49,738 bases of DNA from Opitutaceae bacterium (GTDB lineage: Bacteria > Verrucomicrobiota > Verrucomicrobiia > Opitutales > Opitutaceae): contig CANJNJ010000018.1 of assembly GCA_947474995.1 (NCBI GenBank), forward strand, positions 1 to 49,738, read 5' to 3'. Positions within the stretch are counted from its first letter, which is position 1, and each line of letters opens with the position of its first letter. Under the pieces are notes generated by a model. It was not told the DNA's origin. It ran no database searches and saw nothing but the letters and a program-made list of their open reading frames with translations. Shown here one piece after another: positions 28,392-39,897 of the stretch. The position numbers and the translations under genes are program-made.

Positions 28392-28949
28392 ATGACTTTC
28401 GATGCTTCCCTGGCCGAAACCCTGCGTACGTTCCAAGCGCTCGCCACCCTCCGCCCGGCGATTGATCAGGCGGGCCGGCTAATCATCGGAACGCTCGAAC
28501 GCGGCGGCAAATTGCTCCTCGCGGGCAATGGCGGCAGCGCCGCCGAAGCCGCCCACTTCGCCACTGAACTCGTGGGCCGCTACGCGAAAAATCGGCGCTC
28601 GCTGCCGGCCGTCGCCCTCTCCTCCGACGGCTCGCTCCTTACCTGTGTCGGCAACGATTACGGTTACGAACACGTTTTTGCTCGGCAAATTGCCGGGCTC
28701 GCCAAGCCCGGCGATCTGGTGGTAGTGCTTACGTCTAGCGGCAACTCCGCCAACATCGTTGTCGCGCTCCAGGAAGCCAAGAAACTAGGGCTCGAAAGCC
28801 TCGCCTTTCTCGGCCGCGGTGGCGGCAAAGCCAGGGGCCTCGCCACGTGCGAACTGGTGATCCCGGGCGCGAGCGGCGCGGCGGCCCAAGAGGCCCACCT
28901 GTTTTTAATCCATCATTTCTGCGAGCTCATTGACGCAAAATTTGATTAA
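28392..28949 (+). CDS. gmhA: phosphoheptose isomerase (D-sedoheptulose 7-phosphate isomerase)
   Basis: The 185-residue SIS-domain protein converts sedoheptulose 7-phosphate to D-glycero-D-manno-heptose 7-phosphate, the first step towards lipopolysaccharide core heptose. GNGGSAAEAAHFATELVGRY is the GmhA signature with the phosphate-binding serines. VGNDYGYEHVFARQI and the second loop LTSSGNSANIVVALQEA are also diagnostic. AAAQEAHLFLIHHFCELID ends the protein with the active-site His/Glu region. The length is normal and the ATG at 28392 fits. It is divergent from recF. A dispersed repeat follows immediately after its stop codon. Confidence 0.94.
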   Translation: MTFDASLAETLRTFQALATLRPAIDQAGRLIIGTLERGGKLLLAGNGGSAAEAAHFATELVGRYAKNRRSLPAVALSSDGSLLTCVGNDYGYEHVFARQIAGLAKPGDLVVVLTSSGNSANIVVALQEAKKLGLESLAFLGRGGGKARGLATCELVIPGASGAAAQEAHLFLIHHFCELIDAKFD

Positions 28950-28950
28950 A

Positions 28951-29027
28951 CGTAGCGCCGGTCTCCGACCGGCGTCGGGCGGCCCCGCCGCGGCTCACGA
29001 CGAGAAAGTTCCTCCAGCCTCGTGCAA
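28951..29027 (+). repeat. GTAGCGCCGGTCTCCGACCGGC repeat, copy A
   Basis: It begins 2 bases after the gmhA stop. The core GCCGGTC-TCC-GACCGGC is a perfect hairpin, followed by GTCGGGC and then a tail CACGACGAGAAAGTTC...GCCTCGTG. The tail is shared with copy C at 37495-37585 and partly with copy B at 36415-36468. Confidence 0.75.
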
Positions 29028-29058
29028 AAAAGGCCGCGACGCCCGAGGCGCCGCGGCC
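29025..29058 (-). terminator. intrinsic terminator of the TonB-dependent receptor gene
   Basis: On the minus strand GGCCGCGGCGC pairs with GCGTCGCGGCC (11 bp with one G-T wobble) around CTCGG, followed directly by TTTTTT. It lies 28 bp beyond the receptor stop codon. It may also stop transcripts arriving from gmhA on the other strand. Confidence 0.85.
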
Positions 29059-29086
29059 GGCCAAAAACGGGGTTGCCCGACGCCCC

Positions 29087-31459
29087 TTAGAATTTCCGGG
29101 CGAATTTCACATCGAAGGTCCGGCCCACCGCGGGAATCGCGATGGTGCTGCCAAAGCCGCTCGGTTGAAAATACAGCCGGTCCGTGAGATTGCGTCCCGA
29201 CACCCGGATATCCCAGTTCGGCGTCGTGTAGCCGAACGAGCCCGAGAAGGTCAGCGCCGACGGCAGCGAGATATCCCGCAGGACCGACAGTGGGAATCCC
29301 GCCTGGTAGTTCGAACCGAGCGACACGTCCCAGTGTTGGCCGATGACGAAATTCCCGAAGAGGCTGAACACCTTGTCCGGAGAATAGCGCCGGGCATAGA
29401 GCGGATCCGCCGGCAGCGTCACCGTGATGCGACCGCCATAGGCGGCCATCGGGTCATAGCCGGCCCACAGCGGAGTCACCTGCGTGCTGGCCACCGCCGT
29501 GACCGGATCTGTCATCGAACGCTTCCAGTCCGCGGCGGCGGAAAGGTTGAACTTGGCGTTCGGCACCCAGCGCACTTCCACATCCGTGCCATCACTGGTG
29601 GTGCTCTGATAAAGGTCCAAGGCCACGTTATAGCTCGAGCGGAATTGCTTGAAGCTCGAAACGGAGAGGAACAGGCGGTTGTTGAAGAGATTGGCCTTGA
29701 TGCCCGCCTCTTTGAGGTTCGACGGCTGCAATATTTCCCGCGCCCGCAGAATCGTCGTCGTCAATCCACCGGAACTGCCCGGAATGATCGTCCGTGGTTC
29801 CGCGTAGGTCACGTAGGGGCGGATCCCCTTGAAGACCTCGTGCGACACGCTGACCGACGAAAGCGAGACGCCATGGTCGGCGCCGTAGGCCTGGTCGAAG
29901 GCCGGCCGGATATTCGTCGAAGGAGCCGTCACGTGCGCTTTGATGGCATCGGACCGGACGCCGACGGTGATATTCGTTTTCTCGTGGAGGGTGATATCGA
30001 GCATCACCGCGCCGCCGCTCTCGGTGTGCACACTCTTGGTCGAGCTCTGAATTCCCGCGTCGTTGGGCCCATCCCAACCATTCATGATGCCATAGCGAGC
30101 GTCGGTGTACCTCGTGAGATCCCACCGGGAAAAAATCTGCTGGTCGGAAGTGGTGATATTGAACGTGTCGAGATAGCGGGCATTGAGCGCGCCGACCCCC
30201 GCCACCTTCAGCCAGTCCGGCAACCCATTCGGCGTCCACTCGACCGTCAGTTTCTGCTCGGCGAGAAAGGCCTCGTGAGCCCGAAAGTAGGCGATGTCGG
30301 ACAGTTTATGGTGAGATTGCTTTTCGACGAATGACTTGCTGCGAAAAATCAGCGACGGATTCTGGTCGTTCACGAGGTCGGCAAACGCGATGTAGTCGCG
30401 GCCAAAGCCATCGCGCTCGATCAGAATCTGCCGCGGATTCAGCTTGGTGACACCGACGGTTTTCGAATCCAGCGCGAAGGCCGTCCCGAGCGATGGCCGG
30501 GCCCCCGTGAAGTTGATGTTCTTATTGAGATCACCAACCGCCAAAATTTCCGGCCGGCTGATTAGCCCGTCCTTGTTGGCATCGATATCCCGCGACGGCG
30601 AACCCGTGATATAGTTGCGGTTGTCGATCAAATCCTGGGTGATGCGATTCCAACCCGCCAGCCCGGTGCCGTTGAAATTCTGGTAGTTGAGTCCGGTTTC
30701 CAAGCGCAGGGCGCTCGTCAGGTCCACCGTCAGCGTCGCCTGCACGATCTGCTGGCGGGTCCATGAGCCGATATAGAAGCTCTTCGAATCCTCATCCTGG
30801 CCGTAGATATAGTAGCCGGCGCGTTTGCCCAGGATCGTCGTCGGCCCGCCGACCTCGGCGCTAATCTGTTTCTTGCCATAACTGCCAAGGGTGCTGGTTA
30901 ATTTTCCGGTCTGATGGTCGAGGTAGCGGCCGGTGCTCGCTCGGGCGGACTTCGGCAAATAGTCCATGTACCCGCCGACGCGGCCCGCGCCGTTCACCGC
31001 CGAGGGCGGTCCGCGCACAATGCTCACTCCGTCGCTCGCGCCGATTATCGTCGGCATATTGGAACCGTTCGTGATGCGCTTCACCCCCCGGTAATAGACG
31101 TCCGCGCCGTCCCCGCGCACATCGACCGCTCCCTGGATGCCAAAGGAAAACGCGGTGTAGGTGCTGGGGGCGAAGCGGCCGAGATCGACCAGTTCGTTGA
31201 TGTTGAACTTGTCGATCATCTCCGAGCCGATGATGCTGACCGATCGGGGCGTCTCGAGCACGGGCTTGGCGTAGCCCATGAGGGAATCCGAGTTTCGGGG
31301 AATGATGCCCTTCGGATCATTGCCGTCCTCCGCGACGAATTTTTCCATGACGACGATATTTTCGTCGGTCGGTTTTTCCTTGAGCGCAGTCTGGGCCCAA
31401 CTGGACCCGGCGGCGGCAACGAGTGCGGCGGCGATGATGAAGCGAGGTATGATAGGCAT
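29087..31459 (-). CDS. TonB-dependent outer-membrane receptor
   Basis: The 790-residue protein has an ATG at 31459 and signal peptide MPIIPRFIIAAALVAAAGSSWAQ. A plug domain spans about 45-190 (MGYAKPVLETPRSVSIIG, VDVRGDGADVYYRG, VSIVRGPPSAVNGAGRVGGY). It is followed by a 22-strand-type barrel that ends in a C-terminal Phe (FDVKFARKF), the barrel assembly signal. The plug style is of the siderophore/ferrichrome class, but this group carries many substrates in Opitutaceae. An EF-hand-like loop, DANKDGLISRPE at 293-304, lies in an early extracellular segment. A sigma-54-type promoter (31516-31532) precedes it by about 57 bp and a strong terminator follows. It lies downstream of three exported amidase genes but is separated from them by a terminator. 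Confidence 0.94.
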   Translation of the reverse strand: MPIIPRFIIAAALVAAAGSSWAQTALKEKPTDENIVVMEKFVAEDGNDPKGIIPRNSDSLMGYAKPVLETPRSVSIIGSEMIDKFNINELVDLGRFAPSTYTAFSFGIQGAVDVRGDGADVYYRGVKRITNGSNMPTIIGASDGVSIVRGPPSAVNGAGRVGGYMDYLPKSARASTGRYLDHQTGKLTSTLGSYGKKQISAEVGGPTTILGKRAGYYIYGQDEDSKSFYIGSWTRQQIVQATLTVDLTSALRLETGLNYQNFNGTGLAGWNRITQDLIDNRNYITGSPSRDIDANKDGLISRPEILAVGDLNKNINFTGARPSLGTAFALDSKTVGVTKLNPRQILIERDGFGRDYIAFADLVNDQNPSLIFRSKSFVEKQSHHKLSDIAYFRAHEAFLAEQKLTVEWTPNGLPDWLKVAGVGALNARYLDTFNITTSDQQIFSRWDLTRYTDARYGIMNGWDGPNDAGIQSSTKSVHTESGGAVMLDITLHEKTNITVGVRSDAIKAHVTAPSTNIRPAFDQAYGADHGVSLSSVSVSHEVFKGIRPYVTYAEPRTIIPGSSGGLTTTILRAREILQPSNLKEAGIKANLFNNRLFLSVSSFKQFRSSYNVALDLYQSTTSDGTDVEVRWVPNAKFNLSAAADWKRSMTDPVTAVASTQVTPLWAGYDPMAAYGGRITVTLPADPLYARRYSPDKVFSLFGNFVIGQHWDVSLGSNYQAGFPLSVLRDISLPSALTFSGSFGYTTPNWDIRVSGRNLTDRLYFQPSGFGSTIAIPAVGRTFDVKFARKF

Positions 31460-31515
31460 AGTCCCAGTCAGTTCGTGGTTGCAGTTTGAATTCGTACGAT
31501 TGGCACCGACCATTT

Positions 31516-31532
31516 AGCATCCGAGGTGCCAC
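31516..31532 (-). promoter_or_regulatory. sigma-54-type -24/-12 promoter of the TonB-dependent receptor
   Basis: The minus strand reads GTGGCAC-CTCGG-ATGCT. GG of the -24 box and GC of the -12 box are 10 bp apart, as RpoN requires. Only one base of TTGC differs. Transcription would start near 31506, giving a leader of about 47 nt. The surrounding ~100 bp align nearly without gaps to the region upstream of the DUF3299 gene. Confidence 0.65.
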
Positions 31533-31660
31533 GAACCCGTTTCTCCCCTTCGGATTAATTGATTTCGTGTGACCCTCGGCGGTCAGAAAGGCCGGTCATC
31601 CCCCCGCGGCGGTCGCACGGATCCCGATCGCTGTCGCAGTTGGACTTTCGCTCAGCCACA

Positions 31661-31715
31661 GGTAGGGACGCCTCTCCGCAGGCGTCCGCGGACGGCTCGG
31701 AGAGCCGTCCCTACC
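31661..31715. repeat. composite palindrome with GGTAGGGACG ends
   Basis: The outer arms GGTAGGGACG and CGTCCCTACC are perfect complements. Inside are two hairpins, GGACGCCT-CTCCGC-AGGCGTCC and GGACGGCTC-GGA-GAGCCGTCC, so the element forms a cruciform-like three-way structure. It resembles short non-coding mobile or dispersed palindromic repeats. Confidence 0.7.
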
Positions 31716-31789
31716 GATTCAAGCATCTAATTCCTAACGGCCATTGCTATGAATCATCAGGCTCGCTTTTCACCGGTCCGCGCGGCCAC

Positions 31790-31815
31790 AAAAAAGCGCG
31801 GCCGAACGGCCGCGC
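31790..31815 (-). terminator. intrinsic terminator of the acetamidase/formamidase operon
   Basis: On the minus strand GCGCGGCC pairs perfectly with GGCCGCGC around GTTC, followed by TTTTTT. It lies about 27 bp past the stop of the last amidase gene and separates that operon from the TonB receptor gene. Confidence 0.88.
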
Positions 31816-31842
31816 GGCATTTTGCGAGTTGCTTCAGTGCGC

Positions 31843-33045
31843 TCAGGAGCGCGGCCGATACCAGTAGGTATTCGCGTCGTTCACAAAAAGTTTTTTGGGA
31901 ATCATCGCGTGCACGCCCTGCGTCTTGTCGACCACCTGGGTCACGCGAAAATCCACCGCCGCGCTGCAGAGCGTGTAGGCCTGCATCATGTCATACCCTT
32001 CCTTCTCCTTGAGGAAGTCGAGGGTCGCTACCATGGCATTGTGCATCGCCGTGTCCAAATCGGGATCAAGTCCGTAGATGATGTAATGCGTCGCGGTCTC
32101 CGCCCGCGGACCGGCCAGCGCCTTCCCTTTGTGCAGGATGAATTGGTACGTGCAGCTATTCGCCGTGCCGATGGCGTCACCGGCGATTTCCCCGTCGCCC
32201 TGCGCCGCGTGGCAGTCTCCGGTGTAAAACAGCGCGCCCTTCTGGAAAATCGGCAGGTAGAGCGTGCTGCCCGCCACGAGGTCCTTGCTGTCCAGGTTTC
32301 CGCCAAACATCCCCGGAGGTCCGGAGCGCCGGTTCGGCCCCTCGGAATCAGGCGGGCAAACTCCGTTCACGCCGTTGAACGGCCCGAGTGGAATCTCGAC
32401 CTTCTTGTCGTAGATCGCCGCGTTCCGCTTGAGGTCGAGCAGGTAAACCTTGGTAAACGGCCGCGGCATCAGGTCGGGCAATCCGCCACCGCCCGGGCGC
32501 GCGCTGTTGGAGCCATAGGGCAAGCGCGGCGTGACATCGAGAATCCTCACCTCGAGCGAATCACCGGGTTCCGCTTCTTCGATAAAGATCGGACCGATGA
32601 GAAAATGTCCGCCGAAGCCGGTGCCGGTCGGCGCGCCGGGAGGCGGCGGCAGTTTGTTCGGCGACTCCTTCATCGCCTTCGCGATCTCTTTCACCACGGG
32701 ATCTTCTTCGGTCAGTGGGATATTATTTTCCTTGTACCATTTGTTGCGATCCACCGACTCACCCCCGCGGCCACCGGCACCGGTGCTGCCGCCACCGCCT
32801 TCAATTTTCACGGTGGCACCTGACTTGACGGTCAGGACCGGCTTTTTGGTCGCAGAGAAATGTCCGAAAATCGCGTTCTCCGGCGTGCACGGCACGACAT
32901 AGTCATAGGGCACTTCGAGTCCCATCGCCCGCAGGGCCAGCAGGCCGCCCGCCGCGGCCAGGGCCAGGCGCACAATGGCCAGACGGCCGGCGCTTCGGAC
33001 CGACGGTGAATTTTTGGGTGAAACCAGCAATTGGAGTGAATTCAT
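31843..33045 (-). CDS. exported acetamidase/formamidase paralog 1
   Basis: The 400-residue protein belongs to the FmdA/AmdA acetamidase/formamidase family, which hydrolyses short amides to ammonia and the acid. An N-terminal signal (RLAIVRLALAAAGGLLALRAMG) precedes LEVPYDY, so it is periplasmic; classical members are cytoplasmic. Family motifs are visible: HFSATKKPVLTVKSGATV, GPIFIEEAEPGDSLEVRI, and FYTGDCHAAQGDGEIAGDAI with the metal-binding His/Asp/Glu cluster. The C-terminus ends VHAMIPKKLF. It is the last gene of a three-paralog operon and very similar to paralog 2, including ATHYI(I/T)(Y/F)GLDPDLD. A strong terminator follows. Confidence 0.9.
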   Translation of the reverse strand: MNSLQLLVSPKNSPSVRSAGRLAIVRLALAAAGGLLALRAMGLEVPYDYVVPCTPENAIFGHFSATKKPVLTVKSGATVKIEGGGGSTGAGGRGGESVDRNKWYKENNIPLTEEDPVVKEIAKAMKESPNKLPPPPGAPTGTGFGGHFLIGPIFIEEAEPGDSLEVRILDVTPRLPYGSNSARPGGGGLPDLMPRPFTKVYLLDLKRNAAIYDKKVEIPLGPFNGVNGVCPPDSEGPNRRSGPPGMFGGNLDSKDLVAGSTLYLPIFQKGALFYTGDCHAAQGDGEIAGDAIGTANSCTYQFILHKGKALAGPRAETATHYIIYGLDPDLDTAMHNAMVATLDFLKEKEGYDMMQAYTLCSAAVDFRVTQVVDKTQGVHAMIPKKLFVNDANTYWYRPRS

Positions 33046-33132
33046 GAGTTGTTAAGTTTTTTGAGCTCTCCGGCTCGCGGGCGACTGCCCATCGAGTCCG
33101 GTTTGCAGATGGTGGATTTCTCTCGTTTGTCC

Positions 33133-34290
33133 TCAGCGCGGGCGAAACCAGTACGGATTGCCGTCCTTCACGAAGAGCTTCTTTGGAATCATCCCGTGAA
33201 TCCCCAACGTCTTATCGACGACCTGGGTCACCCGGAAATCCACCGCGATGCTCGCCAGCGTGTAGGCGTGGAAAAAATCGTAGCCCTACTTTTCCTCGAG
33301 AAAGGTGAGCGTCTGGAGCATCGCCATGCGCATGGCTTTGTCCAAATCGGGATCGAGGCCAAACGTGATGTAGTGCGTGGCGTTTTCCGCGCGCGGCGCG
33401 CTCAGTTTTTTCCCTTTGTGTAGGATGAACTGCAAGGTGCTCGTGTTCGCCGTTTCGATCGCGTTCACCGTGATTTCGCCGTCGCCCTGCGCCGCGTGGC
33501 AGTCGCCCGTGTAGTACAGCGCGCCTTTTTGAAACACCGGGAGATATAACGTCGCGCCGGCGACCAGCTCCTTGCAATCGAGGTTGCCGCCAAACACGCC
33601 CGGCGGACCGGACCGGCGGTTGGGACCTTCGCTGTCGTCAGGGCACGTGGCCATCACGCCATTGAAAGGCCCGAGCGGCACCTCCACGTTTTCGTCGTAG
33701 ATGCCGGCGTTACGCTTCAAGTCCAGCAGCACGACTTTGAGAAACGGCCTTGGCACCAGATCCGGCAAGGCTCCGCCGCCGGGATTCGCCCCGACGGTCC
33801 CGTAGGGAATGCGCGGCGTGACGTCGAGGATGCGCACCTCGAGCGTGTCGCCCGGTTCGGCGTCCTCGATGTAAATCGGCCCGACCAGGACGTGGCCACC
33901 GGCTCCTCCGGCCGCAGCCGCCGTCGGCGCGGTGCCGGCCGCGGCCACGGCGGGATTTTCTGCCGGCGGCAGCCGGTTGGTGGTCTCCTTCAGCACGCGA
34001 ACCGTTTCCGCGAGCGCCGGACACGACTCCAGCGTCGCCGGGATACCATTTTCCTTCAGCCACCTGTTGGGATCGTCATCGCGCCAGCGCGCGCCGCCGC
34101 CGCAGTCGATCCGCACGGTCGCGCCGGACTTTACCGTCAGCACCGGTTTCTTCGTGGCGGAGAAATGCCCGAGGATGGCCGTCTCGGGATTGAAGGAGAC
34201 GTGATAATCGTAGGGCACCTCCAGCGCCGCAGCGGTCGTCGCCGCCACCAGACCGAAGACGCCGAAAAAAAGATTAGCGTACCAGCGCAT
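33133..34290 (-). pseudogene. exported acetamidase/formamidase paralog 2, interrupted by an in-frame amber codon
   Basis: From the ATG at 34290 (MRWYANLFFGVFGLVAATTAAALEVPYDY, signal peptide) the frame reads 334 codons and meets TAG at 33288-33286. The same frame then continues for 50 more codons (GYDFFHAYTLASIAVDF, RVTQVVDKTLGIHGMIPKKLF, NPYWFRPR) to a TGA at 33133. Paralog 1 has EKEGYD and paralog 3 has EKKGLE where this copy has EK-stop-GYD, so one base change from GAG or AAG explains it. All catalytic motifs lie before the stop (YYTGDCHAAQGDGEIT). The truncated product lacks the C-terminal 50 residues. It may be inactive, partly active or read through. It overlaps the preceding paralog 3 by 17 nt. 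Confidence 0.85.
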
Positions 34291-35398
34291 AGCTCGTGCC
34301 CTCCGGTTGAGACCAGTAGCTGGTCATGGGTTCGTCTTTGAAAATGGATTTCGGAATCATCGCGTGGATTCCCTTCGTCGAGTCGACCACCTGGGTGACT
34401 TCGAAATCCACGCCGACGCTGCCGAGCGCGAGCGCATCAAAGAACTCGAGGCCCTTCTTTTCCTTCAAAAACTCTATCGTCTGCGTGATGGCCATGCGCA
34501 TCGCGAGGTTCAGCTCCACGTCGAGCCCCATGCAGATGTAGTGGGTCGGCGTTTCCGCCCGGGCGATTTTGATCGGCATATCCTTTCGCACGATGAACTG
34601 CACGGTGACCGTGTTACTGCTTTCAATCGCCGTGATGCTGATTTCCCCGTTGCCCTGGGCCGCGTGCGGATCGCCGGTCTGGAAGAGCGCGCCTTCGACC
34701 TGAACCGGAAGGTAGAGCGTGGCCCCTTTGCCCAGGTATTTGTTGTCGAAGTTTCCGCCAATGTCGCTGTACGGCGGCATCGACGTCAGCCGGCCGCGCG
34801 CGGCCGCCGGGGCGATCCCCATCGTGCCTTGGAATTGCCGCAGGGGAATTTCGATCTTGTCGGAAAACTTTGCGACCTGCCGTTCCAGATCGAACTTGAT
34901 GACCTTGGAATAAGGCCGCGGCACCAAGTCGGGAATTCCGCCGGAACCCGGCCGGCCGGAATTTATGCCATAGGGCGCCCGTGATTTCACGTCGAGGATG
35001 CGAATTTCCAGCGTGTCCCCCGGCATGGCGTCCTCGACGAAGATCGGTCCCGTCATCATATGGCCCCGGATTCCGGACGGCTTAACTTCCTTTCGAATCG
35101 CGAGGATGTCCTTCACGACCTCCAACTCGAGCGGGATGCCGTTATCGAGGAAGAACTTTTCCGGGTCTTCGCTGCTGGCGGTGAAACCGCCTCCACTGAT
35201 CGTATCGATCGCGACCGTCTCGCCGGACTTCACCCGCAGCACGGGCGGAGTGTCGGCGGAGAAATATCCGGAAACCATGTTCGCGGGAATCGAACGCAGA
35301 TGATGATCCGGTTTGGTCGGGACAGCGGTCAGGGTGACCGCGAAGGCGGACAGCGCGACCGCCAGGGCGGCGGCGCGCGAAGGGCGAACAACATTCAT
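34274..35398 (-). CDS. exported acetamidase/formamidase paralog 3 (first gene of operon)
   Basis: This 374-residue protein has an ATG at 35398 with signal peptide MNVVRPSRAAALAVALSAFA. It is the most divergent of the three paralogs: PPVLRVKSGETVAIDTISGG, HMMTGPIFVEDAMPGDTLEI, and FQTGDPHAAQGNGEISI, where Pro replaces the Cys of GDCHAAQGDGE. The metal-ligand region is otherwise kept. Sequence differences suggest a different amide substrate. Its stop codon overlaps the start of paralog 2, so translation is coupled. A possible sigma-54 promoter lies about 70 bp upstream at 35469-35485. The operon order is paralog 3, 2, 1, then terminator. Confidence 0.9.
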   Translation of the reverse strand: MNVVRPSRAAALAVALSAFAVTLTAVPTKPDHHLRSIPANMVSGYFSADTPPVLRVKSGETVAIDTISGGGFTASSEDPEKFFLDNGIPLELEVVKDILAIRKEVKPSGIRGHMMTGPIFVEDAMPGDTLEIRILDVKSRAPYGINSGRPGSGGIPDLVPRPYSKVIKFDLERQVAKFSDKIEIPLRQFQGTMGIAPAAARGRLTSMPPYSDIGGNFDNKYLGKGATLYLPVQVEGALFQTGDPHAAQGNGEISITAIESSNTVTVQFIVRKDMPIKIARAETPTHYICMGLDVELNLAMRMAITQTIEFLKEKKGLEFFDALALGSVGVDFEVTQVVDSTKGIHAMIPKSIFKDEPMTSYWSQPEGTSYALVR

Positions 35399-35468
35399 GA
35401 CAGGCGTAGTTGATTAAATCCGACGCGGACGTGCCGCGCGGACCGATTGATTGGCGTCGCGCCGCGAA

Positions 35469-35485
35469 AGCTGGAAACATGCCAC
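35469..35485 (-). promoter_or_regulatory. possible sigma-54-type promoter of the amidase operon
   Basis: The minus strand reads GTGGCAT-GTTTC-CAGCT: the GG and GC dinucleotides have correct spacing, but the -12 box is CAGC rather than TTGC. Twelve bases further on it has ACGCCAATC, the same block found after the two stronger boxes. This shared downstream block supports a common origin. Confidence 0.4.
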
Positions 35486-35661
35486 GACTTTTTTCGGCGC
35501 CTTCTCGCCACCTGGAGTCGATCGACTTTGGCCCACCCGGCGCGATCGCTGGCGCTCGAAAATCCCCCTGTCGAGGAGCGCGGGCGAAAATCGCATGACG
35601 ACGGTTCGTGCCCACCGCTGCTCACACAAAATCAATTCATAACGTGAGACCCGGGCGGTCC

Positions 35662-35678
35662 GTGGCACCTCGTTTGCT
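35662..35678 (+). promoter_or_regulatory. consensus sigma-54 promoter upstream of the DUF3299 gene
   Basis: GTGGCAC-CTCGT-TTGCT is an exact TGGCAC-N5-TTGC match. Transcription would start near 35689, giving a leader of about 140 nt before the ATG at 35827. The flanks align nearly gaplessly with those of the TonB receptor promoter, including AAATCAATT 33 bp upstream of CGTGGCACC and GCCAATCGT downstream. Confidence 0.72.
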
Positions 35679-35826
35679 TGTCCGACAACGCCAATCGTCT
35701 GACTTCAACCGCCACCACGAACCCACCCGGGCTGTCACGAATCAAGTTCCGGCTCCGCCACCGCAACGAAAAAACGGCCGCGTCAACTCCGCGGCGAGGA
35801 ATCTTTCGCTCCGTCTCCACGCCAAC

Positions 35827-36399
35827 ATGAAATTACCCGGACCTCGACCGCTCACCTCCATTCGCCGCGCCTCGCGGTCAACGTTCCTCCTGCTCTGCGG
35901 CGTGGTGCTGTCCTCCACCCTTCCCGGCTCACCGCCCGAGCCCGCCAGGGAACGCACCACTTCCGTCCGCGGCGAGAAGCTGCCCGAGTTGGGCTTCGAT
36001 CGCTTGTCCGCCTTTCCTTACATCATCATCGACGCCGGCACGGGCGCCACCCCGGCGCAAATCGACGAGGCCAGAAAACGTGGTCAAATCCCCCCCTGGC
36101 TCCAGACGTATAATGGGCGCCGCGTCGTGCTCACCGGTTATTTGCTGCCCCTCCAGATGGAAAACGGCCGGGCGAAGAAATTCATCCTGATGCGCGACGT
36201 CACCACGTGCTGCTACGGCGCTACGCCGAACATGAATGATTACGTGATCGTTTCCATGAAGGGCGAAGGAGCGAAGGCTGATCAGGACATCCCCGTCATG
36301 GTCGCCGGCGTTTTTCACGTCGAGGAAACCTACGACAACGGTTACGTTGTTTCGCTCTTTCACATGGACGGCGAGGTTTTCCTCGGCCCGCGCACTTAG
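35827..36399 (+). CDS. exported DUF3299 protein
   Basis: The 190-residue protein has an ATG at 35827. The N-terminus (SIRRASRSTFLLLCGVVLSSTLPGSP) is a signal peptide or anchor. The domain of unknown function DUF3299 follows: LTGYLLPLQMENGRAKKFILMR, then DVTTCCYGATPNMNDYVIV with the paired cysteines that define the family, and a C-terminal YVVSLFHMDGE. In other bacteria this family is exported and often linked to metal or lipoprotein-type transport genes, but its function is not established. The vicinal Cys-Cys could bind a metal. It is preceded by a consensus sigma-54 promoter that matches the one of the TonB receptor. Confidence 0.85.
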   Translation: MKLPGPRPLTSIRRASRSTFLLLCGVVLSSTLPGSPPEPARERTTSVRGEKLPELGFDRLSAFPYIIIDAGTGATPAQIDEARKRGQIPPWLQTYNGRRVVLTGYLLPLQMENGRAKKFILMRDVTTCCYGATPNMNDYVIVSMKGEGAKADQDIPVMVAGVFHVEETYDNGYVVSLFHMDGEVFLGPRT

Positions 36400-36753: not shown

Positions 36754-37443
36754 ATGAAACTCCTCCTCCGCTCCCTACTCGTTGCTCTCGCCTTCCCCTT
36801 TGCCGCCACGCTGCGCGCCGAAATCTCCGCGGAAGGCTGGCTCGAAACGTATTATCTCAATCCGAAGCCGGACGAACTGCCGCAAGCCATCCGCCAGCTA
36901 AGTCACGACGGCTACTTCGATGGCCCGGGCCACATCGCCGTGTCCATTGGATTTATGAGCACCGTCTTCGTGCAAAATGCCGACCGGGTCGACGGGTGGC
37001 TGCTTCAGCTCCATGGCCTGGACAGCAAAGCCAACCGCCTGATCGCCTCGGCGCTGTGGCAGGCCGGCCATCCGCTTGGTTCCGAACTCTTGCGCCGGCT
37101 GGGCCAGTCCTCCGGTCTCCGCACGGAAATTGAAAAAATCGCCAACACGCCGGTCCTACCGGTGGAGGAAACCGCCATCCGCTCCGTCTCGTCCCTGAAT
37201 CTGCACTGGGGCGCCTTTCTCGCGAGCGGCAGCGACCGCTACATTCTCAGCATCCTCGACGCCGTCGGGCTCGACGAACCCGCGCTGACTTCGACGGCGC
37301 TGGCCACGCTCGCTCGCCACGCCGCGGAACACCCGCGCGTCCTGGAAATTTGCCAGGCCCAGTTGGACCGCCAGCCCGAGGATGTCCGCGGTGTGCTCCG
37401 GGCCGTGGTCAACAGCGCGGCGCCCGCCAAGCCAGCGAGCTAA
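36754..37443 (+). CDS. exported protein of unknown function
   Basis: The 229-residue protein has an ATG at 36754 and a clean signal peptide (MKLLLRSLLVALAFPFAATLRA-EIS). The mature part is helical with alternating hydrophobic and charged residues (ADRVDGWLLQLHGLD, SKANRLIASALWQAGHP, TALATLARHAAEHPRVLE), suggesting an alpha-solenoid or TPR-like fold. I do not recognise a named family. It would be periplasmic. It is flanked on both sides by copies of the GTAGCGCCGG repeat. Confidence 0.7.
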   Translation: MKLLLRSLLVALAFPFAATLRAEISAEGWLETYYLNPKPDELPQAIRQLSHDGYFDGPGHIAVSIGFMSTVFVQNADRVDGWLLQLHGLDSKANRLIASALWQAGHPLGSELLRRLGQSSGLRTEIEKIANTPVLPVEETAIRSVSSLNLHWGAFLASGSDRYILSILDAVGLDEPALTSTALATLARHAAEHPRVLEICQAQLDRQPEDVRGVLRAVVNSAAPAKPAS

Positions 37444-37676: not shown

Positions 37677-38222
37677 GTGCCTTCTCCCCTCCTTGTCTCG
37701 TCGGTTTGGCGGGCGTTTGCGCTCCTGAGCGTCATCGCCGTCGGAGTTTCGGCGGCTCCCGACGCGAGCAGCGTCGCCGTGGTGCGAACTGCCGAATGGG
37801 CGCCCGGCGACGCCACACGCGACGGGGCCGGTGAATTTCTTGTCCTGCTCCGCGCCGCGCAAGTCCAGCGCAAGACTTCCGCCGCCGGTTTGGTGGCAGT
37901 CGGCGATCGTGATGGCATGCTTCGCTCCGGCGGCGAGCGCGGTCTGCGCCGGGCCGCGCTGACCGGAGTGGTTGTCGCCAAACTCGCACCGCAGGGAGCC
38001 GTGGCCCCCACGCCCGATGATCTCTTTATCGATGCCGGCAAACTCCCCGCAGAACATGCCGGGCGGGTTCTGGCCCACGGCCTCGACCTCTTTGGCGCGT
38101 CACCGCGCTCGGTCAATCCCGACCAACCGACCCCGACTGAACTCGCGGCGATTCGCCTTCATCTTCGAAAATTCCAGGCCCTCTTTACTCTCGAGGGTGG
38201 CGCGCGGGTCGCCGTCCAGTAG
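37677..38222 (+). CDS. exported protein of unknown function
   Basis: The 181-residue protein starts at a GTG at 37677, with signal peptide PSPLLVSSVWRAFALLSVIAVGVSA. The mature part contains AAGLVAVGDRDGMLRSGGER, then GLRRAALTGVVVAKLAPQG and DDLFIDAGKLPAEHA. Fragments such as RRAALTGVVVAKL faintly resemble asparaginase C-termini, but too little matches for a call. It is probably periplasmic. It is convergent with the NUP-family gene, whose stop lies 18 nt away. Confidence 0.65.
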   Translation: MPSPLLVSSVWRAFALLSVIAVGVSAAPDASSVAVVRTAEWAPGDATRDGAGEFLVLLRAAQVQRKTSAAGLVAVGDRDGMLRSGGERGLRRAALTGVVVAKLAPQGAVAPTPDDLFIDAGKLPAEHAGRVLAHGLDLFGASPRSVNPDQPTPTELAAIRLHLRKFQALFTLEGGARVAVQ

Positions 38223-38240: not shown

Positions 38241-39293
38241 CTAACGCCGGGGAGTCTCCTTTTCGAACTTTGACCAGTTGGCCACCAACTCGTGCACCAC
38301 GACGCTGCCGACGCGATACGCCGATTCGAGTGACGGGATGAACGCCGAATAGCTGGCGAGTTTTTCGCCGAAGAGGCTTTCGGCCGCCGTCTGCCCCGGC
38401 TTCGGGCCATCAAAATTACTCGCCGTGCGCAGGACGAGCGCGCGTCGCACATCGACCCGTCCGGCGCGGGCGAGCCAGGTCAGCGCCTGCAGCGTTCCGG
38501 TGTCCTCCATCCCCGTCGTCACATAATTCCCCGCGCCACCCGTGTGGTACTTTACCCATTCGTTGGCCCATTGGTTCAGCAATTGCCCGTGCCAGAACGT
38601 TTCCGACGACAACGTGTCACCCTTGAGCACGAACGGAGCGCGCTGGGCGTTGGGCGTGGCGGTGTATTCCGCCCGACGCTTCGCCATGCCTTCAGGATCG
38701 AGGAGCTTCACCTCCTTGGTCAGTTCGTACGCCCAATTCACCAGCCCAGGTTCGAGTCGAAACACTTGGCTCGAGTCGTCCGTCACGCGCGGTTGTTCGT
38801 AGGGCTTGTTCCGGCGCAAAGGCACATAGCCCGTAGGCCAGTCCTTCGGCATCTCCCGCGGATCAATTTCGTGCCCGAGGTCGCCATTGACGATCCACTC
38901 CGCCCACGCCGCCGACGCGAGCGAGGCGTCGGCGGGGTCGACGCCGGCGATACCTGCGACGAGCCAGTAGCTCTGGGTAAAATCAAAACGCGGATCGAGC
39001 CCAAGCGCCATGATCGTCGCGGCGGCCCGGGTGTTCCCGACACCCGTGAGGATGGCGATGACAGAACCATCCGCGTTGGCTCGCACCGCATGATAGGCCT
39101 GCGGCAGCGGAATGACGCGATCGAGTTTCTCCCGTTCCACCCAATACTGCAGTTCGCCGGGCGTGTCGCCTGTGTCGTTGCCAATCTCGAACATCGTCAC
39201 GACCACGACCTTCGGCTTCAGCACCTCGGTCGTCGTGCCGGCCCCGACGGACCACATCATCGAAAACAATGCCGGCAGAAGTCGAATGCGCAT
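38241..39293 (-). CDS. NUP-family (purine nucleoside permease-type) protein, exported
   Basis: The 350-residue protein has an ATG at 39293 with a short signal (MRIRLLPALFSMMWSVGAGTT). It belongs to the NUP family (PF06516), named after a yeast nucleoside permease. The sequence has no transmembrane bundle and looks enzyme-like: KVVVVTMFEIGND at the start, ILTGVGNTRAAATIMALGLD, YWLVAGIAGVDP, and GMEDTGTLQALTWLARAGR, then LVLRTASNFDGP. The GVG and GMEDTG motifs resemble nucleoside phosphorylase/nucleosidase active sites, so periplasmic nucleoside cleavage or binding is more likely than transport. The family name is kept with that caution. Confidence 0.85.
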   Translation of the reverse strand: MRIRLLPALFSMMWSVGAGTTTEVLKPKVVVVTMFEIGNDTGDTPGELQYWVEREKLDRVIPLPQAYHAVRANADGSVIAILTGVGNTRAAATIMALGLDPRFDFTQSYWLVAGIAGVDPADASLASAAWAEWIVNGDLGHEIDPREMPKDWPTGYVPLRRNKPYEQPRVTDDSSQVFRLEPGLVNWAYELTKEVKLLDPEGMAKRRAEYTATPNAQRAPFVLKGDTLSSETFWHGQLLNQWANEWVKYHTGGAGNYVTTGMEDTGTLQALTWLARAGRVDVRRALVLRTASNFDGPKPGQTAAESLFGEKLASYSAFIPSLESAYRVGSVVVHELVANWSKFEKETPRR

Positions 39294-39375
39294 GGGCCGG
39301 AGCACATCAGGAATTGTGCCACCCGCAAATCGGTTCTTGCGGGAACGCCAGAGGCGGGTTCGCTGTTCCCTTCCT

Positions 39376-39897
39376 ATGAGCACTCCCGCACCCGCCAACG
39401 AAAACGCGATCATCAAGACGAGCTACGGCGAAATGACGCTGGCCTTCTGGCCGGACGTCGCGCCCAAAACCGTCGAGAACTTTAAGAAACTCGCCCGGGC
39501 GGGATTTTACGATGGCACCGCCTTTCACCGCATCATCAGCGGCTTCATGATTCAGGGCGGCTGCCCGAACACCAAGGCCGGCGGCAGCGGCATGCCCGGC
39601 ACCGGTGACCCGGGTTACAAGGTCAAGGCCGAGTTCAACGCCAAGGCCCACGTGCGCGGCGTGATTTCCATGGCCCGCTCCGCCTCCCCGGATTCGGCGG
39701 GCAGCCAGTTCTTCCTTTGCCACGGTGACGCCCGCTTCCTCGACAAGCAGTACACGGCCTTCGGTCAGCTGATCGCCGGCGACGACGTCCTCGAGCGCAT
39801 CGCCAGCGTGCCCACCAAGTCCGGCGGCGGCGGAGAAAAAAGCACGCCAATCGATCGCGTCGAGGTTACGACGGTGACGATCGTCCCCGCCAAGTAG
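39376..39897 (+). CDS. cyclophilin-type peptidyl-prolyl cis-trans isomerase
   Basis: The 173-residue protein has an ATG at 39376 and no signal peptide, so it is cytoplasmic. The cyclophilin signature is complete: FYDGTAFHRIISGFMIQGG with the catalytic Arg, and GVISMARSASPDSAGSQFF with the substrate-binding Gln and Phe. FLDKQYTAFGQLIAGDDVL ends the core. It catalyses proline isomerisation in protein folding. The frame is open far upstream, but only the part from 39376 is family-like. Its TAG stop lies within the first bases of a GTAGCGCCGG repeat (copy D). Confidence 0.95.
   Translation: MSTPAPANENAIIKTSYGEMTLAFWPDVAPKTVENFKKLARAGFYDGTAFHRIISGFMIQGGCPNTKAGGSGMPGTGDPGYKVKAEFNAKAHVRGVISMARSASPDSAGSQFFLCHGDARFLDKQYTAFGQLIAGDDVLERIASVPTKSGGGGEKSTPIDRVEVTTVTIVPAK

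What the first reader, a model, noticed from the sequence alone, without database searches (positions are those of the whole stretch)
31470..35730. Duplicated sigma-54 promoter and leader module driving a TonB receptor and a DUF3299 gene
About 100 bp upstream of the TonB receptor (minus strand, about 31572-31470) and of the DUF3299 gene (plus strand, about 35624-35730) align with at most one indel. Both carry TGGCAC-N5-(T/A)TGCT, the RpoN -24/-12 signature. Both also carry AAATCAATT 33 bp before CGTGGCACC, and GCCAATCGT plus CCACGAAC in the leader. Conservation beyond the promoter boxes, in the leader and in the upstream block, suggests a portable regulatory cassette with a bound activator or a structured 5' UTR. 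I see the sequence similarity directly; the sigma-54 reading rests on the established consensus.
Basis: partly seen in the sequence, partly recalled or inferred. Interest (0 to 1): 0.78.

Follow-up and report, generated by a model that had tools for sequence, protein, structure and literature searches.

The report
Sigma-54 promoter module for nitrogen scavenging
Two matching stretches of DNA in this bacterium are very probably the same nitrogen-type (sigma-54) gene switch used twice in one gene cluster that seems to scavenge nitrogen, and they carry a conserved start-of-message sequence and a mirrored flanking repeat whose role is still open.

Summary
Confirmed: two ~100-bp modules, window 31457-31586 (-) and 35609-35734 (+), align with one indel, far above chance. 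They are very probably sigma-54 promoters: the genome has rpoN and two response-regulator activators with GSFTGA; a model built only from module copies also finds flhB, flgB and nitrite/sulfite-reductase promoters in relatives; similar boxes precede 15 of 30 amtB loci (controls 1 and 3). The module was found only in the genome's own family (Opitutaceae, by the titles of four relatives). In the window it precedes a TonB receptor and a DUF3299 operon; in relatives also amidases, asparaginase, acetamidase/formamidase and an ABC operon. A nitrogen-scavenging regulon is the best reading, but the nitrogen signal is inferred. Copy 2 matches a promoter in G023 that drives ABC ATPase, permease, DUF3299 and two further genes; the window lacks the first two. 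Beyond the boxes: AATTMAT 22 bp upstream; GCCAATC(R)(Y) starting 12-13 nt after the -12 box, i.e. at the predicted mRNA 5' end; and, in about a third of promoters, an inverted repeat around promoter and leader whose arms match better within than between promoters. Their functions are unknown. No transcript start was measured and no activator site found. "Portable" holds only within this regulon.

The parts
31457..31586 (-). promoter-leader module, copy 1 (before the TonB receptor)
   Evidence: model R1 E 4.6e-24; alignments A2, A4
31516..31531 (-). -24/-12 boxes TGGCACCTCGGATGCT
31554..31560 (-). upstream AATTAAT element, 22 bp before the -24 box
31496..31504 (-). GCCAATCGT start-site element, 12 nt after the -12 box (predicted mRNA 5' end)
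31529..31536 (-). left arm GTTCGTGG of the inverted repeat (short in this copy)
   Evidence: sequence; this copy's arms do not pair better than cross pairs: 20 of 54 cross pairs as good
31471..31478 (-). right arm CCACGAAC of the inverted repeat
   Evidence: sequence
29087..31459 (-). TonB-dependent receptor; start codon directly after the module
   Evidence: Pfam Plug PF07715 E 6e-7; relatives' receptors align
31843..33045 (-). acetamidase/formamidase-like gene
   Evidence: PF03069
33286..34290 (-). acetamidase/formamidase-like gene
   Evidence: PF03069
34274..35398 (-). acetamidase/formamidase-like gene; its own promoter was not identified
   Evidence: PF03069
35609..35734 (+). promoter-leader module, copy 2 (before DUF3299)
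   Evidence: model R1 E 5.8e-26
35663..35678 (+). -24/-12 boxes TGGCACCTCGTTTGCT
35634..35640 (+). upstream AATTCAT element, 22 bp before the -24 box
   Evidence: sequence; element pattern in relatives
35690..35698 (+). GCCAATCGT start-site element, 12 nt after the -12 box
35650..35665 (+). left arm of the inverted repeat
   Evidence: fold; none of 54 cross pairs as good
35715..35731 (+). right arm of the inverted repeat
35827..36399 (+). DUF3299 gene (start codon chosen by me: ATG at 35827)
   Evidence: PF11736 E 6e-8
36754..37443 (+). gene of unknown family, conserved in this cluster
   Evidence: no Pfam match; homologues in G205, G203, G023, G209
37677..38222 (+). gene of unknown family, conserved in this cluster
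   Evidence: no Pfam match; homologues in G205, G203, G023, G209 and a weaker one in G186
38241..39416 (-). purine nucleoside permease-like gene (frame listed from TTG; start uncertain); membership of the unit not shown
   Evidence: PF06516 E 1.8e-117; homologue beside the cluster in G205, partial in G203

Best explanation
Both blocks are sigma-54 promoters of one nitrogen-scavenging gene cluster, one for each of two transcription units: the TonB receptor, and DUF3299 with the genes after it. Sigma-54 polymerase binds TGGCAC-N5-NTGC and an NtrC-type response regulator opens it, presumably under nitrogen limitation, so that an outer-membrane receptor, amide hydrolases and transporters of the cluster are made when nitrogen is short. 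Transcription should start 12-13 nt after the -12 box, so that the mRNA begins at or just before GCCAATCGT, a conserved start-site element whose role (promoter escape, operator, or 5'-end RNA element) is open. Shown here: sequence, conservation, gene context, presence of rpoN and activators. Inferred: use of sigma-54, the transcript start, the nitrogen signal, which activator acts.
For: Copies far above chance. rpoN in own genome, E 4.8e-57, and in 232 of 252 family genomes. Of 7 PF00158 matches in the own genome two are strong full response-regulator activators with GSFTGA. R1, built from seven module copies, also reaches flhB (G200, G116, G087), flgB (G209) and a nitrite/sulfite reductase (G043). 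Boxes scoring at least 10 of 13 lie 450-150 bp upstream of the amtB match in 15 of 30 loci, against 1 (reversed) and 3 (reverse complement); at least 11: 7, 0 and 0. In model alignment A5, 29 of 31 rows (3 of them duplicates) have no indel between the two boxes. AATTMAT plus boxes: 8 of 252 genomes, backward control 0. Boxes plus GCCAATCRY: 21 places in 13 of 252 genomes, backward control 0. The genes behind those 21: 10 TonB receptors, 5 amidases (4 Pfam-checked), 1 asparaginase, 1 HlyD-type, DUF3299, 1 tandem copy before a TonB copy, 1 uncalled, 1 probable chance. Further module places before acetamidase/formamidase (G209) and an ABC ATPase (G023). G023 keeps module, ABC ATPase, permease, DUF3299 and the two following genes in a row.
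Against: No transcript start, no expression data, no activator site. The boxes alone are at chance level. In the window the amidases are not behind either copy: copy 2 points away from them and their promoter was not identified. 15 of 30 amtB loci do not reach the score, and some of the 30 are neighbouring genes of one genome. The ligand of the receptor is unknown, and G214's tandem genes beside the receptor gave no Pfam match for the one scanned. DUF3299 is known from a zinc system (PMC9817125), which nitrogen does not explain. 224 of 252 family genomes have no R1 match at E 0.01 (stricter filters). Of the 17 weakest R1 places (E from 5e-4 to 0.0094) seven were unassigned or look like chance and one was not fetched.
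Confidence: 0.75

Rival explanations
1. Promoter in a hairpin loop: the inverted repeat closes over the ribosome-binding region only in read-through RNA, while the sigma-54 transcript starts inside the loop, lacks the left arm and is translated. This would add a translational lock to the same promoter.
For: Arms of one promoter pair better than arms of different promoters: 28 promoters, 0 of 20000 permutations as good, z -4.6; four moved-window controls gave 19459, 4307, 18075 and 605 of 20000. Right arm ends just before the TonB start codon in G203, G205, G214B, G182. Folds z -5.7, -4.6, -3.6 for G203, G205, G214B. Precedents: sigG (PMC5942855, passages), T4 genes (PMC2988022, passages).
Against: Only 8 of 28 promoters have clearly self-matching arms (at most 3 of 54 cross pairs as good). 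Two of the best (copy 2 and G023b) have a divergent, not a co-directional, gene upstream, whereas copy 1 and G023a have a co-directional gene and weak arms. Four of seven folds, both window copies among them, are not clearly better than shuffles. In a chosen nine of the TonB copies 245 of 20000 permutations were as good. Quasi-palindrome correction during replication could keep arms alike without selection.
Confidence: 0.12
2. Not a sigma-54 promoter: the conserved letters are loops of a structured RNA leader transcribed from an upstream promoter.
For: Long hairpins with conserved loop letters in G203, G205, G214B.
Against: No Rfam match in the window; weak consensus structure (-9.2 kcal/mol); copy 1 folds no better than shuffles; fixed box spacing and the flhB/flgB/amtB matches are unexplained.
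Confidence: 0.05
3. Sigma-54 promoter, but the signal is not nitrogen: for example metal (zinc) or a particular substrate.
For: DUF3299 is ZrgE, part of a zinc ABC system in Vibrio (PMC9817125, passages); G023 has ABC ATPase, permease and DUF3299 in one unit.
Against: Targets across genomes are amidases, asparaginase and acetamidase/formamidase; amtB and nitrite/sulfite reductase promoters look alike.
Confidence: 0.15
4. The module is a small mobile element with terminal inverted repeats.
For: The copies are inverted with respect to each other around the amidases, and some copies have inverted ends.
Against: Arm sequences differ between copies while internal boxes are conserved; two copies in this genome; G023 has counterparts of both window copies before the same genes.
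Confidence: 0.03

Closest known systems
Sigma-54 (RpoN) -24/-12 promoters of nitrogen genes such as glnK-amtB
   Same: Box sequence and fixed spacing; rpoN and NtrC-type regulators in the genome; similar boxes before amtB in the own genome and relatives
   Different: Adds a conserved start-site element and, in part, an enclosing inverted repeat; GCCAATC was not seen in the 27 nt printed after the amtB boxes
Computed sigma-54 regulon of Opitutia (PMC12316311; passages found by term)
   Same: Motility genes and ABC ATPase/permease (COG1136, COG0577) as targets
   Different: In the passages that I saw no TonB/amidase cluster and no leader element is described for Opitutia; the ABC genes are read there as antimicrobial defence
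sigG leader of Bacillus subtilis (PMC5942855; passages)
   Same: A repeat that can form a hairpin in read-through RNA but not in RNA from the gene's own promoter
   Different: Here only inferred, in a subset of copies, with contexts partly against it
ZrgABCDE zinc transporter of Vibrio with DUF3299 protein ZrgE (PMC9817125; passages)
   Same: ABC ATPase, permease and DUF3299 in one operon (G023)
   Different: No Zur site or zinc link tested here; the promoter is of sigma-54 type; the window lacks ATPase and permease at this place

Membership tests
Sigma-54 promoter | GG and GC 10 bp apart within TGGCAC-N5-TTGC-like boxes | tested here: met
   Both copies; copy 2 exact, copy 1 one mismatch
Sigma-54 promoter | rpoN and activators with GAFTGA-type motif in the genome | tested here: met
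Sigma-54 promoter | Shares boxes with classical sigma-54 genes of the same family | tested here: met
   flhB, flgB, nitrite/sulfite reductase, amtB
Sigma-54 promoter | Activator binding site upstream | not tested
   No systematic motif search was made; inspection of printed upstream sequence showed no obvious site
Sigma-54 promoter | RpoN-dependent transcript start about 12 nt after the -12 box | not testable with these tools
   needs RNA data
Nitrogen-control (NtrC) regulon | Targets are nitrogen-acquisition genes | tested here: met
   amidases, asparaginase, acetamidase/formamidase in relatives; in the window only by neighbourhood
Nitrogen-control (NtrC) regulon | Induced by nitrogen limitation through NtrC | not testable with these tools
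   needs expression data; which activator is NtrC was not determined
Structured RNA leader / riboswitch | Match to a known RNA family | tested here: not met
   no Rfam match at gathering threshold in the window
Structured RNA leader / riboswitch | Stable conserved fold across members | tested here: not met
   strong in 3 of 7 folds, not in copy 1; weak consensus; arms self-matching in 8 of 28

The most novel reading that the evidence does not exclude
A class of sigma-54 promoters with a conserved mRNA 5'-terminal element (GCCAATCRY) and, in part of its members, a sequence-variable but self-complementary repeat enclosing promoter and start codon: a two-layer switch in which the sigma factor decides transcription and the start-site or hairpin element decides promoter escape or translation.
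Probability: 0.2. Interest if true: 0.7.

Novelty: new variant of a known kind. Interest (0 to 1): 0.5.

Why it matters
It defines a small, searchable regulon for amide-nitrogen scavenging in a little-studied family of Verrucomicrobiota, gives a hint of function for its TonB receptor and for DUF3299 operons there, and offers a case of apparent selection on the first transcribed bases of sigma-54 mRNAs that simple reporters could test.

Tried and rejected
Boxes alone as evidence: rejected, because counts equal the controls.

Structured RNA as the main reading: favoured after the first folds, given up after the flagellar and amtB results. RNAalifold on six copies gave a weak structure.

Viral collection scan for a 16-base word: 82 stretches, about what chance would give by my own rough estimate; not followed.

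The first dyad statistic used a wrong site for G139 and is replaced. An ORF-based choice of downstream gene failed for G032 and took an implausible frame for G175.

Of the 17 weakest R1 places, these were not used as support: G037, G154, G099, G064, G271 and G141 (unassigned, box spacing not met or chance-like) and G238 (inside a fliK-like frame). The second G140 place was not fetched. One of 21 places (G201) looks like chance and one (G129, L193) has no called gene behind it.

Papers: searches (15 of 1,306 listed; 12 of 14; 10 of 33; 8 of 29) were seen as listings; passages were read in PMC12316311, PMC5942855, PMC2988022 and PMC9817125. No listing showed a paper on this cluster or leader element.
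Full report
Observation. They align over about 100 bp with one indel. The local alignment score of 62 exceeds 2000 dinucleotide shuffles (maximum 28) and 1943 other segments of the window (maximum 29); BLAST over the own genome gives E 2e-6 for the second copy. A sequence model that includes them finds just these two in the genome. The -24/-12 boxes alone would not be evidence (6 places against 9 in the control).

Where else it occurs. Model R1 gave 36 places in 28 of 252 family genomes at E up to 0.01.

Gene context of copy 1. The TonB receptor behind copy 1 has homologues beside the same SIS and RecF-like genes in G205, G203, G214, G023 and G202, with the module before them. Beside the receptor lie three tandem hydrolase-like genes of different families: acetamidase/formamidase in the window (Pfam) and G023 (tblastn), amidase-signature type in G205 (one of three Pfam-checked), G203 and G209 (judged from sequence), and genes of unknown family in G214 (one scanned, no Pfam match). 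In the window these genes lie upstream of copy 1 on the same strand, and copy 2 points away from them; which promoter drives them was not found. In relatives the module does stand before amidases (G186, G129) and an acetamidase/formamidase (G209).

Gene context of copy 2. In G023 a third copy of the module precedes an ABC ATPase (Pfam), a permease-like gene, a DUF3299 gene and homologues of the two genes that follow DUF3299 in the window. The window has module, DUF3299 and those two genes, without ATPase and permease. The ATPase start codon of G023 aligns with ACG in copy 2. Copy 2 therefore looks like the promoter of an operon that lost its first genes; this is inference. So the two copies serve two transcription units of one kind of cluster, rather than being a freely moving cassette.

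Why sigma-54. rpoN is present here and in 232 of 252 family genomes. Two activators with receiver domain, GSFTGA and Fis-type HTH are present. R1, built only from seven module copies, also reached flhB in three genomes (G200, G116, G087), flgB in one (G209) and a nitrite/sulfite reductase (G043) (FlhB Pfam-checked for G116). Upstream of amtB, 15 of 30 loci have a site scoring at least 10 of 13, against 1 and 3 in two controls; the own genome's site is TTGGCACTGAGGCTGCTAA. The 30 loci include neighbouring amtB genes of one genome and genomes of other families of the order, so they are not all independent.

Beyond the boxes. First, AATTMAT, 22 bp upstream in both window copies and 21-23 bp in six of the seven others that match: with the boxes it occurs in 8 of 252 genomes, once each, and never backwards; G032, with 18 bp, looks like chance. 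An IHF-type bend would suit position and composition but was not tested. Some module promoters lack it (G186b, G129b, G209b). Second, GCCAATC followed by R and Y, 12-13 nt after the -12 box: with the boxes 21 places in 13 of 252 family genomes, backward control 0; in 322 genomes of the order, 52 of the family and 270 of others, it was found in three, of which only G517 is outside the family and that place looks like chance. Behind the 21 places lie 10 TonB receptors, 5 amidases, 1 asparaginase, 1 HlyD-type protein, DUF3299, 1 tandem copy before a TonB copy, 1 uncalled, 1 probable chance. The flgB and flhB promoters lack the element. By the usual geometry of sigma-54 promoters (recalled) it lies at the very 5' end of the mRNA. 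Third, an inverted repeat: left arm just upstream of the -24 box, right arm in the leader, before the start codon in the TonB copies. Arms of the same promoter pair better than arms of different promoters (28 promoters, 0 of 20000 permutations; moved-window controls 19459, 4307, 18075 and 605 of 20000; a chosen nine TonB copies 245 of 20000). The effect comes from 8 of the 28. Relatedness is not modelled, although related arms should improve cross pairs rather than own pairs.

How it most likely works. Under nitrogen limitation an NtrC-type regulator activates sigma-54 polymerase at both promoters, and receptor and transport or processing genes are made together; amide nitrogen is taken up or released. 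The nitrogen signal is inferred from the targets. The start-site element may act on promoter escape, as an operator, or as RNA; nothing here decides. The repeat could lock read-through RNA, as proposed for sigG (PMC5942855) and as ribosome-site sequestration is reported for T4 genes (PMC2988022), but copy 2 and G023b have strong arms and no co-directional gene upstream, while copy 1 and G023a have one and weak arms.

Known or new. Sigma-54 control in Opitutia has been computed before, with motility and ABC ATPase/permease genes among the targets (PMC12316311, passages). My library searches (listings, partly capped) showed no paper on this cluster or leader element; subscription papers are not held. 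DUF3299 is ZrgE in a zinc ABC system of Vibrio (PMC9817125, passages), which keeps a metal signal open as a rival.

Noticed in passing
L140 near 1501 (G209 flgB), L136 (G200 flhB), L146 1428-1470 (G087 flhB), L157 (G160 amidohydrolase): The start codon lies within a few bases of the predicted sigma-54 transcript start, so these mRNAs may be leaderless.
   Followed up: no
Leaders of G203, G205, G214B, G182 (L123, L122, L124, L127) and of amidase promoters G186, G129 (L131, L132): An ATG in the leader (ATGAAC or ATGGA) out of frame with, or far before, the gene could start a short upstream frame (e.g. ATG GAC CAA CCA TAG in G186); absent in both window copies (ACG) and in G258 and G257.
   Followed up: partly
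L029 9735 and 10126 (G214): Two module copies about 390 bp apart in tandem before one TonB receptor.
   Followed up: partly
L029 12925-17322 (G214): Three tandem related genes of unknown family behind the receptor, where relatives have amide hydrolases; no Pfam match for the one scanned.
   Followed up: partly
window 28392-31459: The TonB receptor is inverted relative to the SIS gene compared with G205, G203, G214 and G023, where both point the same way.
   Followed up: no
G000:C57:11168-16138: Three neighbouring amtB-like genes in this genome, one match with an in-frame TGA.
   Followed up: no
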